A stretch of DNA of 64,000 nucleotides from Anadara kagoshimensis (lineage: Eukaryota > Mollusca > Bivalvia > Arcoida > Arcidae), in the NCBI GenBank assembly GCA_021292105.1, contig CM037869.1, forward strand, positions 40,627,530 through 40,691,529, given 5' to 3'. Below are positions 36,411 to 45,064 of the stretch, in pieces (the stretch's first letter is position 1; each line of letters begins with the position of its first letter). The notes under the pieces are model-generated. The model did not search any database, was not told where the DNA came from, and was given only the letters and a program-made list of their open reading frames with translations. A program made the position numbers and the translations under genes.

Positions 36411-37898
36411 ATGAAGTTCAGCTTCAGAAAGGTATACTACTACTTAATCTAATACGGCTAACAAGATATTATCTATATCAACGATCCTTCGCGTTAAACT
36501 TATTAAAACAGTTGATATAAAGGCCACTGCAAAACTTTTTTATCATGATAAAAATAAATATATATCTGTTGCACAAAAACTATGATTAAAACGGAGACTT
36601 TTAATAAGATGAAATAGTATGGGACATCGTTAGCCGTGTTGTTGCCTCGAAGCTTAATGAAATCCATCAGATGATAAAGTAAGCACGGAAGTTTGAGGGA
36701 AAAAAATCACATTTGATTTCATATACATGTACGTATGATGGATTCTAAGAAACCTTGTTGAGAAATTTAGCGGAGAAGATAGATAAAAATAAGAATAAAT
36801 AAATAAATATTATTATTTTTGGGCACTTTTTTACATGCATGGTAATGCACGCAAAATTAAAATATTGTAAAATGCAAAACAATAGCAGGGTGTTGCTAAT
36901 GTCATTTACATGTAGCAATGAAAGTCACGGGGTCCTTCGGAAAAGACTTGATTAACCAATGCATCACATGATAACAATGTATCACAGAAAGTATGGCTCG
37001 TTGGAGACCCTCCCTGTACACTGTACGCACCTCAAAGGTAAAAACTTCAAATATTTCATCTATAGCTGGTGACGTCTCGATTTAAGTAAATATTCTTGAC
37101 TAGATCTAAAAAAACCATTTAACAAATCAACCAATCAATCAATCAGTCAATCAAGTTGCATTCGTAAAACTCTTAGATTACAATTATTTAAACAATAGTT
37201 CTCGATTGGTACCTTTTATGCCTCCCCAAAAAGAGTTAAGATTATAACGGTCTTAGGAGAGACAAATACCTCCCTTTCCCAACATCCAGACGGACGAACG
37301 GACAGACAGACGGACAATAACTTTGGTTCCATGTTTGATTAAAATCCATTCTTAGACATGGAAGCATATGTAAAGCTGACACGATATTTTGACGGACCGA
37401 CGGACGGACGGACGGACAGGGTGATTCGTATAAATACCCCCTAAACATTTTTGCGGGGTATGGTACGGTTGGACAAAGCACACGATGTATGTGCCTGAAT
37501 GTACGTTGCTATTGCTAGTTGGTCTAAATCGAAGTCGTAAAATTTTGAGACTTTTTTTTTGGTAATATCAAAAAGTCTCCTCGTCTTGAGCCCCAATCTG
37601 TGGTCTTCATTAGGCGTCGAAATTGTCAACGCCTAATGAAGTCCGGACTTCATTAGGCGTCGGACTTCATTAGGAGTTGTTACATGCCTAAAACATCAAT
37701 ACTCAACATTTAAGGAGAAATTGACTACAGTCAAACCAGTCTATAAAGGTCACCTAAGGAAACCAGAACGCAACCTTCTCAATAGCTGGACGTCTCTTCG
37801 TCGCCTGAGATATTTATATCTGGCTATATCCACCAGATGACTTTTTGCATTATGTGATTTGCTTAGTATGATTATAAGGAGCTACTGCACCGGCCCAT

Positions 37899-39177
37899 AT
37901 GTCAAAAAGGAAGGATAGAGGATCGTCAGGTTCAGAAAATATAGAAGTTTCTAACCCCAGTAAACGGGGGTATATAAACAATAGTATGATGGCCGACAAC
38001 GATAGCCCAGGTGAGACGACTAATGAACTACTCTCAGGTATGTCAGGCAGTAATATAAATGAAAAAACTTTAATGATTGTCTCGAATATACAGGACAAAT
38101 TAGATTCATTCTTTAAAAAGTTGGATCATGTGTCAAATGAAGTAGATAGTATTAAAAATGATATCAAGAAAAGAAACGGGATAGAAGAAAGGTTAGAATT
38201 AGTGTGTATCGAAGCGACAGATCAAGGTAAAGAAATAGATGAATTGCGTAGGGAAAATAAAAAGCTTACAGGTGAAGTAGAACTCATGAAGTCGTATATA
38301 ATACGTTTAGAACAGAGGGTTAATAGTAACACCGTTGATATAACTAATCAGGCCGCTCGTGGAATGCGCAACAACTTAATTTTACAGGTGTGAAAGAAAC
38401 AGACGGCGAGAACTTATTTGAAAAAGTTAATGAAATAATAGTGAATGAGCTAAAGTTAGATCCCGTAAAATTTGATAGGATACACCGCATAGGTCCAAAA
38501 ACAAACAAATCATATCCAAGATCCATTGTAGGCAAATGCTTTGACTATGCACAGAGAGAAAATGTTCTCAGACACGCAAAACACCTGAAAAATGGCATTA
38601 AAATTCATCCACAATTCCCAGAATCAAACAGAGAAAATAGAAAGCGGGCCTTCGATTTACATAAAAAATATGAAGAAGAAAATGTTGAAACTAAGGTAGT
38701 AGGGGAAAAATTAGTGTTCAAGCAATCAGGAAATCAATATAGAGAAAAAATAAGCCTCCCTAAAGCAAACACGGTATTGACTAGTAAAACAGAAACTAAT
38801 TACAAGGTATACCATTCCGATTTGATACCGACGGTGAAAATAAGTTTCAGGCACATGCAATCGAAATATCGAGCATCAAAGAAGCGAGGGAAGCATCTTT
38901 ACAGGTCTTAAAGGAGCCCGAAATCGCGAGGGCAAATCATAACGTACTCGCTTGTGTATATCTGAACAGAAATGGTGAGCTGAAGGATTCGATGGATGAC
39001 GACATGGAATTTGGAGCCGCGAGAAAAATTCTAAATCTGATGCATGATAAAGAAATTGCCAACTGTATGATAATCGTGTCTAGGTGGAATCCTCATGGAC
39101 AAAAGTTAGGACCAAGGCGCTTCGATCACTTTAAAAGCTGTAGCCTAAATGTCATGAAAAAAGTGTTTGTTGTCTAA
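37899..39177 (+). CDS. LINE ORF1: coiled coil, RRM-like region and C-terminal Impact_N-like domain (two frameshifts)
   Basis: Probably the RNA-binding chaperone of the LINE particle. The ATG at 37899 opens MSKRKDRGSSGSE, with Lys/Arg-rich and Ser-rich start. A predicted coiled coil covers residues about 50-145 (heptad-like LDSFFKKLDHVSNEVDSIK and IDELRRENKKLTGEVELM). An L1 ORF1-type RRM follows (MRNNL, then FDRIHRIGPK and PRSIVGK), then the basic C-terminal region (GIKIHPQFPESNRENRKRAF). From 38821 a third part resembles the Impact_N/UPF0029 domain. Frames change twice: near 38380 at a T-run and near 38822 at a T-run, each explained by one missing base; allowing for these the span equals 427 codons including the stop. 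Without them ORF1 would end at 38393. An ORF1 with this third domain is not one I know. Confidence 0.85.
38821..39174 (+). other. Impact_N/UPF0029-like domain within LINE ORF1
   Basis: 118 codons are open here. Visible blocks in the order of eukaryotic IMPACT/YIH1 proteins: KFQAHAIEI (family: FQAH), IARANHNVLACVY (family: AxATHNxYAYR), SMDDDMEFGAARKILNLM (family: DDGE.AAG..LLHLM), NCMIIVSRW (family: N.xVVVSRW) and KLGPRRFDHFKSCSLNV (family: LGPDRFKHI.NCARN). IMPACT binds GCN1 and dampens GCN2 activation. The Gly pair after SRW and the Tyr of the second block are changed, so the binding surface may be altered. The domain begins directly at the second frameshift and ends at the TAA. Confidence 0.82.
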
Positions 39178-40935
39178 TCAACAGTATTAATATTATAAAA
39201 TATATACTGGTAATGAATAATTGTATTTTATTTAGCATATATAAACACTATAACAATTCAACATATCAATGGTATTGTAGGTGCTAAATATAACACACAC
39301 GCTGCGTCATGCCGATATTTCATCGTAACTTGTATGCTCATTAACACACAAAACAAACGCACAAGCTTCAAAGTGAATTACTTCCCTTTAATAAATTTTA
39401 AAGGAAAATTTATATAAAAAAAACATATAGGCTTTCATAGAGTCAATACGTTGTAACTTTTTATTTACTTATTACTATATATTTTTTGTCAGCGAGTTGC
39501 AATATTTTTATGATAAATAGCGAATAAAACAAATGCTTATAGAACAGTAGATAAAATACCTAGCTACTGATCACACATTGCAATATAACTGCCAAATATT
39601 TTTTTTCATAAAAGCGTGTCTCTAAGTACAAAACGCCTACAATACTCTGATAGTTGATATTTTGATGCATATGGATTTGTTTGAGTGTTTTTTTCTGTAT
39701 ATAATATCAGTACGCAGAAATATTCGTACATAGGTCGTGCGCGACCTGATGGCAGATTTTTATATACACGGACAAGTTTAAACCATGTTTATACAGGTAA
39801 TCGGGGAGTACCAGCGTAAGAAAGTGTGTAATCACGCCGCCTCATTTGTATATTTTTGCCATCAGTTCGTAAACGACTTATACCTTTGATTGGTTTTAAA
39901 AGTGTGTTTGTTTGTATATAATGGTCGTTCGCAGTCTGATGGCAGATGTTTCATATACACAACGAGTTTAAATCACTTATACAGGTAATCAGGGAGTATC
40001 GTCGCAAGTGGTGTATGTAATCACGCCACCTCACTCCTTATTCGTCACATATGTGGATTTACTGTATATTCTTGCCATCAGTTCGTAAACGACTTGTACC
40101 TTACATTTATTTGATATTGTGAATCGTACACGCTGTTTTGGCAGAGCAATGACATATGAATGAGTGTTAAATATGCAAATAGATTAAATATTTCACCCAA
40201 TTAGATTTTACTTTACACTGAATATTTTCCGTCTTTATAGTACGATATACACATATACGAAGTGTAGCCATAAGTGATTGCTTACAATATCACAAATTTT
40301 AAAGACAATTTTTAAATATAATTACACTGCCATAATTCCGTGTACGAACTACAATGTAAATATTATGCATACGGACATACATGCATGTATATATGTATAT
40401 GTATGTGTGTATGTGTATGTGTGTGTATGCATGTGTATGTATATATGTATATATATATATATATATATTGAGTAAAACTGTATATGTATGCTTATGTGTG
40501 TATGCGTATGTATATGTGTGTATACAGATACGAAGGTGAGGAGCACTTGGATTATGACTGCTGTTGCCTATTATAATTTATATACGTACCGGGTATTTGA
40601 TATAACTGCATGCAATAGCAGTCATAATGGCGCTCTTTAACTATTTTTGTTTACTGAACCCGTAATAACAAATGGGCGACGTTTTTCAAACTTTAAGTAA
40701 AACATGTTAAGTGTGGATAAAGTCTGATGTAAATATCTCTCTCTACTATTATTTTCTCTTTTTTCTAATACTCTCTTTTTCTCTTCTTACTTTTTTCTTT
40801 CTTAATACATTTAAATAACTGACATAAATACATTAAAAACAATATTAAGGGAAAACATGATTTGTCTCAAAATTAAAGGTACTTCTTTTTATTATACTAA
40901 GTATAAGTACAGATGTTACAAAGATATTTGTGATT
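39178..40935 (+). other. Long inter-ORF spacer of the LINE, with a ~190-bp duplication
   Basis: 1.76 kb without an ORF. Copies at about 39733-39895 and 39923-40105 share 'ctgatggcaga', 'gtttatacaggtaatc', 'taatcacgcc' and 'tgccatcagttcgtaaacga'; within each, 'ctgatggca' and 'tgccatcag' can pair over about 130 nt. A (tatg)n/(tgta)n tract lies at 40370-40520. L1-type elements usually have a much shorter spacer, so this is unusual. It may hold a promoter or a structured RNA; this is inference. Confidence 0.65.
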
Positions 40936-43900
40936 ATGGATAATCAAACATACATTCAAATAGTTACTTATAACTGTCGAGGACTTCGAGATATTACAAA
41001 AAGATTAGATGTATTTGATTATTTAAAAGCTAAAAATTGTAATATTTACTGTTTACAGGATGTGCATTTTACTCCAGATAACGAAAAAGAACTAAAAGGT
41101 CAATGGGACGGAAAGGTTATTTTTTCATCTTACAGTTCAAATTCAAGGGGTGTTTGTTTTCTTTTTAATAATAATTTCGAATTTTCAATTCTAAACGAAA
41201 TTAAAGATGAAGATGGTAATCTTATACTAATTGACATTAAGATAGACAAAGATACTTTCACAATAATAAATATTTACGGACCAAATGAAGACAACCCAGT
41301 ATTTTACAACAAAATAGATAACTTTTTGAATAGTTCAAACAGTAAAGTAAAAATTATTTGCGGGGATTTCAACTTGGTGCAAGATTTTGATTTAGATACA
41401 AGTGGATATAAAAAGTTAAACAATCCGAAAGCCAGAGATAAAGTTTTACAAATTAAAGAAACACGTGATTTAATAGACCCTTTTCGTACTCTCAACCCAC
41501 AGTTAAAACGTTACACCTGGCGCAGAAAAAATCCAGTTAAACAATCACGGCTAGATTTCTTTTTACTTAGCGAGAGCTTTCTACCGCAAGTTCATAGTAT
41601 TCTCATAGAACCTGGGTATAGATCGGACCATTCTATGCTTATTTTGAAATTTAAATTAAATGACTTTATCAAAGGCAGGGGACTATGGAAATTTAACTCT
41701 AGCTTATTAAATGACCCAGAGTATGTAAAACAAATTAAAAAATGTATACTTAAAGTAAAACAACAATACGCCTCCCTGTATATAATGTAGAAAATATTGA
41801 TGAAATTAAAAATGAAGAATTAATGTTTAGAATAACCGATCAACTTTTCTTAGAAACTCTTCTAATGGAAATAAGGGGTGAATCAATTTCATATGCGTCA
41901 TATGCCAATAAACAAAGACTGGGGAAAGAAAAAGAACTATTTGAAAATATTAATACTTTAGAATCAAAATCCTCTTTAACAGATGACGAAATTGCAAGTT
42001 TAGAATTAAATAAAAACGAACTTGAATTAATAAGAAAAACAAAATTAAAAGGCAACATGGTAAGGTCAAGAATTCAATTTATTGAAGAAGGAGAAAAACC
42101 ATCAAAGTACTTTTGTAACTTGGAAAATAAAAATTTCACGTCAAAAACTATAAATAAAATCATTACTGATGACAATAAAGAAATAACAGAACAGTTCAAG
42201 ATTTTGAATGAAATTAAACAATTTTATGAGAGATTATATACTGAAGTCCCAATCGAAGAACACAACTTAAAAGAATTATTTCATAATATTAACATTAATA
42301 AATTGGATTTTAATGAACAAAATAGTATTGAAGGTGAAATACAACATCATGAAGTTCTAAAGGTCTTGAAAAAAATGAAAAATAACAAAAGCCCAGGTTC
42401 AGACGGTTATACTGCGGAATTTTTTAAATTTTTTTGGAAGGACATCGGAAATTTTGTTGTCAGATCTGTAAATGAAGCCTATTATTCTGGGGAATTGTCT
42501 GTTACTCAAAAATTTGGAATTATTACTTGTCTTCCTAAGGGCGATAAATCAAGAGAATTTTTACAAAACTGGCGCCCTATCTCTTTATTAAATGTTACGT
42601 ACAAATTAGCCTCTGGATGTATAGCCGAACGATTCAAAACAGTTTTAGATAAGCTTATATCAGATGACCAAACCGGGTTTCTAAAAGGAAGATATATAGG
42701 GGAAAATATTAGACTCATTTATGATATTATGGAACATACTGAACAAAAACACATACCAGGCATGCTATTTTTAATTGACTTTCAAAAAGCTTACGATACT
42801 GTGTCATGGAAATTTTTACATGGTGTTTTAGATTTTTTTAATTTTGGCCCATCAATTAAACAGTGGATTAAAGTCTTTTATACGAACATCAAATCATCTA
42901 TAGTACAGAATAACTTTTTATCAGCTCCATTTAAAATCAACAGAGGAGTGAGACAGGGTGACCCCATCTCTAGCTACTTATTTTTATTATGTGCTGAAAT
43001 ACTAGGAATTTTAATAAGAGAAAATATAGAAATAAAAGGAATAAAAATAAATGACGTTGAACATAAAATATCACAGTTTGCTGATGATACTACTTTTATC
43101 CTTGACGGCTCGAAAAAATCTTATGACGAAGCAATAAAAACTCTCGATATTTTTGCTAGTATTTCCGGTCTTTCTATAAATATTTCTAAATGTAAAACTA
43201 TTTGGATCGGATGCAGAAAATATTGTGGCGAAACCTTTAACCATAGATTGAAAAATACCATTGACGATAAATTTACATTATTGGGAATACATTTTAGTGT
43301 AGTTTTAGATGATATTGTTAAAATTAATTACAATAAAAAAATAAGTGAAATCAAAAATATTCTTAAAGCATGGAAAATGAGATCATTAACACTCATTGGA
43401 AAAATTACAGTTATAAAGAGTTTGATTATATCTAAACTCAATTATCTTTTTATCACTTTACCCAACCCAACGGAAAAATTTATTGTAGAGTTAAAAGCAA
43501 TGATATTTAATTTTTTGTGGGGTGGAAAATGTGATAGAATAGCCAGAGACACTTTAATACGAAGTTATTGGAATGGTGGTTTAAAAATGATAGATCTTGA
43601 CGCCTTTATAAATGCTTTAAAATTAACGTGGATAAGACGAATCTTAAAACAAAACTCGAAATTCATAAATATAATGAAATGTTATTATGATATTCATAAA
43701 ATTGCTTTTGGGGGATCTGACTATTACAAAGACAGCCACAGATATAAAAACCGATTTTGGGCAGATGTATTTTATGGTTTAAATGAATTAAATAAAAAAG
43801 AAAAACCAAAAATATGGTCAGATATTTTCACAAGCTGTATTTGGAATAATCCGTTTTTTAAAATAGGAAATAAGTCATATCAATTTGATAGGTGGATTGT

Positions 43901-44732
43901 AAAAAAAGTATTTTTTGTTTCAGACTTACTAAAAACAGATGGAATATTCTATACATATGAGGAATTTATAAGAGTATATGATGTAAAAACCAACTTTCTA
44001 GAATATAACAGTGTTTTAGAATCTATTAAAGATGCTTTATCAGAGTTAAAAATACTTAAATCATTCGATTTCCAACCGGCAGCCCCATTTATACCATTTC
44101 AGATAAAGACAATTTTAAAATCACAAAAAGGAGCAAAAGATATGTATTTATCCTTAATTGACAATAGAAATACGATAAGTGAAAGCAAATGGTCGAATAC
44201 ATTCAACTTAGAATCAAAAGAAATAAGAAAGATTTATTACCTCCCTTTTTACATAACACGTAATACATCTCTCCAGTGGTTTCAATATAGAATTAACAAA
44301 AAAATATTGGGAGTTAATTCATTTTTGAAAAAAATCGGTATACAAACGAATGATAAATGCTCTTTTTGTAAAAGAGAACCCGAAACTATTTTTCATCTTT
44401 TTTGTGAGTGTGGATTAGTAGTCGATCTATGGAATTGTCTTGAAGATTTCGTCAATATCAATATAAGTGAACCTTTCGAAATGGACCCTAAAGTTGCTTT
44501 ATTTGGAATTCCAAAGATTATTCAAAAATACAAACCTTTAAATTTCATAATATTAATAACTAGATTTTACATTTATCAGGCAAAATTAAATAACAAGACA
44601 CTCAATTTTTGTAGTCTTAAAGCTTATATAAGATACAATTTGCTTTTAGAAAAAGACATAATGTTAAAAAGTCAAAAACATGAACTTTTTAGGAAATACT
44701 GGCTGCAATTTACAGAAAAATTTTCTTCATAA
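40936..44732 (+). CDS. LINE ORF2: APE endonuclease and reverse transcriptase (one frameshift)
   Basis: Nicks target DNA and copies LINE RNA onto it. The ATG at 40936 is preferred to the GTG at 40930. Endonuclease (to about residue 240): VTYNCRGL, LQDVHF, INIYGPNED, GDFNLVQDFD, QSRLDFFLLS and RSDHSML. Reverse transcriptase: NNKSPGSDGYTAEFF, NWRPISLLNVTYKL, LIDFQKAYDTVSW (motif A), VRQGDPISSYLF (motif B) and SQFADDTTFI (motif C, FADD). C-terminal Cys/His motif CSFCKREPETIFHLFCEC. The first frame ends at 41790 (TAG) and the second, open from about 41763 through 41823 to 44732, continues the same protein, so one base is missing near 41775. Corrected length is about 1265 residues, normal for L1/Tx1. 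Confidence 0.93.
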
Positions 44733-44921
44733 TCTTTAACTCCCTGTCTTATACTTAGTAATGTTTTAATTAGTATATACGCAACTTTTCATGTAGTATT
44801 TAAGTAATTGTAATTATGTAATTAAAGTACATGTATTAGTTAATAGATAATGTTTGGGCATTGTAATTGTATATGTATGTATTTATGTCACAAAATAAAA
44901 ACATTATTAAAAAAAAAAAAA
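44733..44921 (+). other. LINE 3' end with poly-A tail
   Basis: AT-rich 3' untranslated region. An aataaa hexamer at about 44894-44899 lies 10 bases before the A-tail at 44909-44922, a spacing that fits a normal polyadenylated transcript. Confidence 0.75.
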
Positions 44922-45064
44922 AGTGGCCTTTATGAGCAGGTGACCATTATATACAGGTTCAAATTATATGAATAAAGAACAATAGGGATACAATTCTACT
45001 AGCCTTTATAGGCAGGTGGCTCTTGTATAGAGGTGGCCTTTAAGGCAGGTTGGACTGTAACCCT

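What the first reader, a model, noticed from the sequence alone, without database searches (positions are those of the whole stretch)
38821..39174. A LINE ORF1 with a C-terminal Impact_N/UPF0029-like domain
Seen: 118 open codons after the L1-type ORF1 region contain five blocks in IMPACT order (FQAH, A-NHN, DDxE..A, IIVSRW, LGPRRFxHxxxC). Known: IMPACT/YIH1 binds GCN1 and restrains GCN2, the kinase that shuts down translation under stress. Inference: the element may have captured this domain to keep its own RNA translated, or to hook its particle to ribosome-associated GCN1. I do not know of such an ORF1; novelty is unchecked. The frame is open from the frameshift to the natural stop, and with two missing bases allowed ORF1 is a whole number of codons (427), which argues for one continuous protein.
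Basis: partly seen in the sequence, partly recalled or inferred. Interest (0 to 1): 0.92.

Follow-up and report, generated by a model that had tools for sequence, protein, structure and literature searches.

The report
Jumping gene carrying an IMPACT domain
A large and recently active group of LINE jumping genes in this genome makes an RNA-packaging protein with an extra end-piece taken long ago from the ancient half of IMPACT, a host translation-stress regulator; the piece has been kept by selection, but what it does is not known.

Summary
Window 38821-39174 encodes a real UPF0029 (IMPACT "ancient") domain: Pfam E 9.6e-18, 64.6 bits against a cut-off of 27. Its model (pLDDT 92) matches Yih1 and YigZ. 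It is not a chance insertion. Three capped genome searches give 206 distinct places. In 15 of 20 fetched 10-kb loci the domain ends one open ORF1 frame of 391-465 codons, behind a coiled coil and the RRM+CTD of LINE-1 ORF1p. ORF2 follows in 19 of 20; the window's RT is nearest to L1. Between subfamilies silent sites are near saturation while amino acids are constrained as in the ORF1 core. Core and domain trees agree, which indicates one old capture. The host's own intron-bearing IMPACT groups with Yih1, not with the LINE domains. Copies are up to 99.6% alike, with poly(A) and, in several, target-site duplications. A new variant of a known kind, function open.

The parts
37766..44922 (+). whole LINE copy, about 7.16 kb, ending in a poly(A) tail
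   Evidence: shared limits of copies L009 and L011-L013 at the 5' end, L009-L011 at the 3' end (window = L009 position + 35970); AATAAA and poly(A) at 44894-44922
37899..38393 (+). ORF1, N-terminal coiled-coil part (first frame)
   Evidence: open frame 37878-38393 with first ATG at 37899; coiled-coil helices 15-121 in the model of the related ORF1 L014
38363..38800 (+). ORF1 core: L1-type RRM + CTD (second frame of this broken copy)
   Evidence: frame 38348-38911; family profile matches LINE-1 ORF1p 2ldy/2yko, E about 5e-8
38821..39177 (+). UPF0029/IMPACT ancient domain, C-terminus of ORF1, with stop codon (third frame of this broken copy)
   Evidence: PF01205 E 9.6e-18; AlphaFold2 pLDDT 92.2; Foldseek Yih1 8.7e-7, 2cve 4.2e-5, YigZ 1vi7 3.7e-4
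39178..40935 (+). long inter-ORF spacer, about 1.76 kb
   Evidence: between the ORF1 stop and the ORF2 ATG at 40936; 1.1-2.4 kb in the 18 loci measured
39723..39886 (+). spacer repeat unit 1 (complementary ends CTGATGGCA / TGCCATCAG)
   Evidence: self-match 70% over 195 columns; the 426-nt region 39690-40115 folds with z -4.4
39911..40102 (+). spacer repeat unit 2
40936..41790 (+). ORF2, endonuclease part
   Evidence: PF03372 E 3e-14
41754..44732 (+). ORF2, reverse transcriptase and zf-RVT part (shifted frame)
   Evidence: PF00078 E 1.5e-31, PF13966 E 1.1e-8; best PDB match 8c8j, then LINE-1 ORF2 proteins, 3e-40

Best explanation
It is an L1-clade non-LTR retrotransposon lineage whose ORF1 protein has a fourth module. 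After the coiled coil, the RRM and the CTD comes a UPF0029 domain captured once, long ago, from a eukaryotic IMPACT-type gene and kept since by purifying selection (shown by sequence). The proposed mechanism is inferred. ORF1p trimerises through its coiled coil and coats the LINE RNA, as L1 ORF1p does, so the particle displays several copies of the domain. The domain keeps part of the surface shared by IMPACT, Yih1 and YigZ, and docks the particle, or the ORF1p still being made, to a translation-linked host partner of the ancient domain. That would help keep the LINE RNA translated or packaged in cis. The partner is unknown and need not be GCN1.
For: Domain: PF01205 in 10 of 10 members of A1, best 2e-22; model pLDDT 92.2; three structures at E<0.001, all of this family. 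Fusion: 15 of 20 loci with one open frame of at least 380 codons; domain next to core in 19 of 20; 112 of 143 core matches have a listed domain place just downstream. LINE: ORF2 in 19 of 20; window RT nearest to L1. Selection: pN<pS in 55 of 55 domain pairs, mean pS 0.78 and pN 0.41, against 0.80 and 0.39 for the core. One unit: core and domain trees share 5 of 8 splits, reached by 1 of 20,000 label permutations. Retained surface: H40, D60, E63, R88 and G97 are invariant in 11 LINE subfamilies and in the cellular homologues compared (at least 4 of 5 present per column), hypergeometric p 0.006. Recent activity: copies up to 99.6% identical, poly(A) and apparent target-site duplications, 10 elements with a listed domain place and an ORF2 frame of at least 1150 codons. 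Translation link: a paper passage says PF01205 has been suggested to counter translation inhibition under starvation (PMC6822775). The steps from trimer to docking rest on recalled knowledge of L1 ORF1p and on inference.
Against: No binding partner, expression or mobility data. Only 5 of 14 cross-kingdom invariant columns are invariant with the same residue in the LINEs, and the RWYGG loop is altered in most of them, so the ancestral ligand may have been lost. The papers call the ancient domain's function unknown. Only one genome was examined. The RT tree shares none of its splits with the core tree for 8 taxa, so ORF1 and ORF2 may have been reassorted. 19 of the 31 core matches without a listed domain were not read.
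Confidence: 0.5

Rival explanations
1. The domain blocks the GCN1-GCN2 stress pathway as IMPACT/YIH1 does, so the element's RNA stays translated.
For: Same domain family as IMPACT/Yih1. The Yih1 region sufficient for Gcn1 and ribosome binding is said to overlap a stretch that includes the linker next to the ancient domain (PMC4503747, passages). PF01205 has been suggested to counter translation inhibition under starvation (PMC6822775, passage).
Against: RWD substitutions reduce Gcn1 binding, and RWD alone inhibits. RWD is not among the families listed for 10 ORF1s, and none of 10 RWD places is at a listed LINE domain place.
Confidence: 0.15
2. The domain is an extra RNA-binding or RNA-chaperone module: its ribosomal-protein-like fold simply adds nucleic-acid affinity or stability to the ORF1p trimer.
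For: It sits directly behind the RNA-binding RRM+CTD; the resemblance of the fold to ribosomal protein S5 domain 2 is recalled, not tested.
Against: Net charge is near neutral: -1 to +4 in 10 of 11 subfamilies and +7 in one. The residues kept include those invariant across the family.
Confidence: 0.25
3. Passenger: the domain was caught by read-through and is tolerated without function.
For: No functional data exist.
Against: Silent sites near saturation while pN stays 0.12-0.43 in the 22 closest pairs listed; intact in diverged subfamilies; among the 12 of 31 doubtful core matches read, none is an ORF1 of this lineage with an intact end but no domain.
Confidence: 0.03
4. Chance similarity or an assembly artefact.
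For: The window copy is frameshifted.
Against: E 9.6e-18, fold match, 206 places, in one frame in 15 of 20 loci.
Confidence: 0.005

Closest known systems
LINE-1 ORF1p (type II ORF1: coiled coil, RRM, CTD)
   Same: Same three modules in the same order; core profile matches 2ldy/2yko; window RT nearest to L1.
   Different: An added C-terminal UPF0029 domain; an inter-ORF spacer of 1.1-2.4 kb.
IMPACT / Yih1 (UPF0029 ancient domain, PF01205)
   Same: Pfam hit, fold and some family-invariant residues.
   Different: No N-terminal RWD seen; fused to a LINE ORF1; only 25-39% identical to the host IMPACT.
YigZ / TTHA1053 (bacterial UPF0029)
   Same: Same fold.
   Different: LINE domains group with eukaryotic IMPACT (SH-aLRT/UFBoot 93.4/94); no second YigZ-type domain was listed.
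PHD and esterase ORF1s of CR1/L2 LINEs (PMC4120745, passages)
   Same: Host-type domain added to a LINE ORF1, including type II ORF1 with PHD; reticulate ORF1 history.
   Different: Other domains; CR1/L2 lineages, not L1; no UPF0029 in the passages seen.
Virus-type helicase domains in Jockey ORF1 and TRAS ORF2 (PMC5563155, abstract)
   Same: Foreign functional domain captured by LINEs and conserved.
   Different: Viral helicase, insect elements.

Membership tests
UPF0029 / IMPACT ancient domain (PF01205) | Curated Pfam score | tested here: met
   64.6 bits, cut-off 27; 10 of 10 relatives match
UPF0029 / IMPACT ancient domain (PF01205) | Fold of Yih1/YigZ | tested here: met
   Foldseek E 8.7e-7 to 3.7e-4, TMq 0.66-0.76
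UPF0029 / IMPACT ancient domain (PF01205) | Cross-kingdom invariant residues | tested here: inconclusive
   5 of 14 such columns invariant and identical in 11 of 11 LINE subfamilies; others vary
IMPACT/YIH1 protein (GCN1-binding regulator) | N-terminal RWD domain | tested here: not met
   Not among the families listed for 10 ORF1s; 10 RWD places in the genome, none at a listed LINE domain place
IMPACT/YIH1 protein (GCN1-binding regulator) | Binds GCN1 and restrains GCN2 | not testable with these tools
   needs experiment
Type II (L1-type) ORF1 | Coiled coil + RRM + CTD | tested here: met
   profile match to LINE-1 ORF1p; AlphaFold2 layout
Type II (L1-type) ORF1 | Homotrimer | not testable with these tools
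   only monomers predicted
L1-clade LINE | APE endonuclease and RT in ORF2, RT nearest to L1 | tested here: met
   window copy
L1-clade LINE | Poly(A) tail and target-site duplications | tested here: met
   poly(A) in 7 of 7 copies printed; duplications read by eye in L011, L014, L016, L018, L020; unclear in L019; not clear in the window copy L009
L1-clade LINE | Short inter-ORF distance as in mammalian L1 (recalled) | tested here: not met
   1.1-2.4 kb in the 18 of 20 loci measured; about 5 kb in L023; no ORF2 within L022

The most novel reading that the evidence does not exclude
The captured ancient domain and the long, repeat-bearing inter-ORF spacer form one translation device: trimeric ORF1p, bound to its RNA, uses the domain to hold or recruit ribosomes or translation factors so that ORF2, 1.1-2.4 kb downstream, can be translated without the close coupling seen in related LINEs of the same genome. 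If so, the ancient half of IMPACT is a ribosome or translation-factor docking domain in all kingdoms.
Probability: 0.1. Interest if true: 0.9.

Novelty: new variant of a known kind. Interest (0 to 1): 0.62.

Why it matters
LINE ORF1s are known to pick up PHD, esterase and helicase domains, but I found no report of an IMPACT/UPF0029 domain in one (searches; open-access papers only, and only the listed top hits were seen). A parasite has kept this piece through a large radiation, so it probably pays, and it may tie LINE replication to translation control or RNP handling. The ancient domain of IMPACT is conserved from bacteria to animals, yet its partner is unknown (passages). A LINE that needs it would give an assay (mobility) for a function that has resisted study.

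Tried and rejected
Chance insertion, artefact and one-copy explanations were rejected. Recent capture from the present host gene was rejected: the host IMPACT has an intron in the domain (read by eye) and groups with Yih1. A universal conserved RNA structure in the spacer was not supported. Of 200-nt windows, 12 of 145 in spacers fold with z below -3, against 0 of 110 in ORF1 and 1 of 150 in ORF2; but five of ten representatives (L018, L021, L024, L025, L027) have no spacer window below -3, the units differ between subfamilies, and some lie in simple repeats. Rfam gave only sub-threshold hits on TA/TG-rich repeats. Viral contig scans with the domain and with one ORF1 found no relative.

Results against or open: 31 of 143 core rows lack a listed domain (two of the 31 are pieces of one place on C4). 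I looked at 12 of these: 6 do have it, often cut short, 1 is cut inside it, 5 belong to other LINE lineages without it; 19 were not looked at. Of 137 RT matches, 50 have a listed domain place 1.5-8 kb upstream. The domain's strand was not checked. Of the 19 with an ORF2 frame of at least 1150 codons and no listed domain I read the upstream stretch of 5: no ORF1 core in any; 3 are truncated inside the spacer; 2 are unresolved. The other 14, and 68 further RT matches without a listed domain, were not read. Other species could not be searched.

Full report
What is there. Positions 38821-39174 lie in an open frame (38800-39177) that gives a UPF0029 domain: PF01205, E 9.6e-18, 64.6 bits against a curated cut-off of 27, profile positions 4-105 of 107. 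By sequence the single protein matches the PDB IMPACT homologue 6bqi at 4.2e-8. A profile of 11 such domains matches it at 5.5e-18, but the bacterial YigZ-type proteins 2cve and 1vi7 only at 0.001 and 0.013. AlphaFold2 with the 11-sequence alignment gives pLDDT 92.2. Foldseek against the PDB returns three chains below E 0.001, all of this family: Yih1 (6bqi), 2cve and YigZ (1vi7), TMq 0.66-0.76.

The element. The window copy runs from about 37766 to 44922, as its near-identical copies show, and ends in AATAAA plus poly(A). ORF1 begins at 37899. Its coiled coil, its core and its domain are in three different frames, and ORF2 is in two, so this copy is presumably dead. The core is L1-type: a profile of ten relatives matches LINE-1 ORF1p structures at about 5e-8. 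The window's RT matches L1 (3e-40) far better than R2 (5e-19).

Other copies in the same genome. The domain protein finds 150 scored of 294 candidates, the Pfam family 150 of 275, all 150 over the cut-off, and a second domain 151 matches from 150 of 317 candidates scored. The union of the places listed is 206, a lower bound that includes cut pieces. One further match, a bacterial-type YigZ on the 728-kb contig C22, was left out of that count. The places whose sequence I read are LINE ORF1s. Of 20 loci fetched at 10 kb, 19 have core and domain side by side and one (L010) has the domain only. Fifteen have them in one open frame of 391-465 codons; the five that do not are the window's own family. 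ORF2 follows in 19 of 20; in the exception, L022, array-like sequence runs to the end of the locus. The ten representatives aligned include nine that are 31-47% identical to the first, so the group is old and diverse. It is also young in places: copies are 99.6% identical over about 6.95 kb (L018/L019), insertions end in poly(A), with apparent target-site duplications in L011, L014, L016, L018 and L020 (by eye), and 10 of 29 RT matches with an ORF2 frame of at least 1150 codons have a listed domain place upstream.

Is the domain always there? Of 143 core matches entered (7 second-piece rows dropped), 112 have a listed domain place just downstream (domain strand not checked). Of the 31 others, 12 were read. 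Six carry the domain, often cut short; L048 is cut inside it; five (L034-L037, L046) belong to other LINE lineages whose related ORF1 ends after the CTD. In L034-L037 the ORF2 frame follows in the same reading frame directly after the ORF1 stop codon (4 of 4), and the RTs read for three of them are very far from the present group (L038-L040). None of these five ORF1s matches PF01205. Among near-intact ORF2s without a listed domain, 5 of 19 upstream stretches were read. None has an ORF1 core; three (L050-L052) are truncated inside the spacer of families that carry the domain; L049 and L053 are unresolved; the positive control L054 shows the domain. I saw no ORF1 of this lineage with an intact end and no domain, but 19 core rows, 14 near-intact RT places and 68 other RT places remain unread.

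Selection and history. Between 11 subfamilies synonymous differences are near saturation in the domain (mean pS 0.78), while mean pN is 0.41, and pN<pS in 55 of 55 pairs. The core gives 0.80 and 0.39. The domain is therefore constrained about as strongly as the RNA-binding core. Core and domain trees share 5 of 8 splits, reached by 1 of 20,000 label permutations, so they have travelled together. The RT tree of 8 elements shares no split with the core tree; L017 in particular pairs with L018 by ORF1 core and with L024 by RT. This is either weak resolution or ORF1-ORF2 exchange, as published for CR1/L2 LINEs (PMC4120745, passages). The host's own IMPACT lies on C19 in two copies with an intron inside the domain (splice sites by eye). 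In the tree it groups with Yih1 (87.2/89), the LINE domains form one group (86.9/84), and both together stand apart from the YigZ types (93.4/94). A long branch could push the LINE group down, so I read this only as an old, single capture from an IMPACT-type gene, not as proof that it predates animals.

How it may work. The residues H40, D60, E63, R88 and G97 are invariant in all 11 LINE subfamilies and in the cellular homologues compared; the overlap of invariant columns is more than expected (5 of 8 LINE-invariant and 14 family-invariant among 72 columns, p 0.006). In PMC4503747 (passages) invariant features of Yih1 and YigZ are said to lie in loops on one side of the molecule, suggesting conserved binding, while function and partners 'remain elusive'. 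There, RWD substitutions reduce Gcn1 binding; PMC7140605 (passages) says overexpressed RWD alone inhibits growth on starvation and that the ancient domain's function is unknown. One paper passage says PF01205 has been suggested to counter translation inhibition under starvation (PMC6822775). RWD is not listed for the LINE proteins, and no RWD place in the genome coincides with a listed LINE domain place. So the best-supported mechanism is docking of the ORF1p particle to whatever the ancient domain binds, probably linked to translation. Partial retention of the surface is shown by sequence; trimer display is inferred from L1; the partner is unknown. An extra RNA-binding module is the main rival, weakened by near-neutral charge.

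The spacer. In the 18 of 20 loci measured the distance from the domain's stop to the first endonuclease match is 1125-2358 bases; L023 has about 5 kb with 37 copies of a 106-base unit. The window has two units of about 160-190 bases with complementary ends, and the 426-nt region folds with z -4.4. L014 and L028 share a 220-base hairpin-ended unit at 71%. Different subfamilies carry different units, and five of ten representatives show no strong fold. The long spacer is common to the loci measured; a common structure is not shown.

Compared with what is known. LINE ORF1s with added PHD or esterase domains (PMC4120745, passages) and with virus-type helicases (PMC5563155, abstract) are the closest kinds. 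I found no paper naming UPF0029, PF01205 or IMPACT in a LINE ORF1 in the searches. These cover open-access full text only, their long lists were seen only at the top (for example 20 of 197), and Repbase and Dfam entries could not be searched. A 2023 bivalve TE paper counts L1-Tx1 among the most ubiquitous mollusc LINEs; a term search of its main text finds no UPF0029 (PMC10294476).

Verdict. Real, old, selected, widespread in this genome and recently active: a new variant of a known kind, with an open and testable function.

Noticed in passing
window 39178-40935; L009-L028: Inter-ORF spacers of 1.1-2.4 kb in 18 loci, with subfamily-specific hairpin-ended or tandem units; L023 has 37 copies of a 106-bp unit, and in L022 array-like sequence runs to the end of the 10-kb locus.
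   Followed up: partly
L034-L037, L038-L040: Other LINE lineages with the same type of L1-like ORF1 (coiled coil, RRM, CTD) but a very different RT (3 read); in 4 of 4 the ORF2 frame lies in the same reading frame directly after a single TAG stop of ORF1, which could mean stop read-through.
   Followed up: partly
L031 (G000:C22:147400-148100): A 728-kb contig of the assembly carries an intronless bacterial-type YigZ ORF of 129 codons; probably a bacterial contaminant or symbiont contig.
   Followed up: no
L017: ORF1 core groups with L018 and the window, RT with L024: possible ORF1-ORF2 exchange.
   Followed up: partly
L055, L056 (G000:C19:29.49 Mb and 28.01 Mb): Two near-identical copies of host IMPACT exons 1.48 Mb apart: a duplication or an assembly haplotype.
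   Followed up: no
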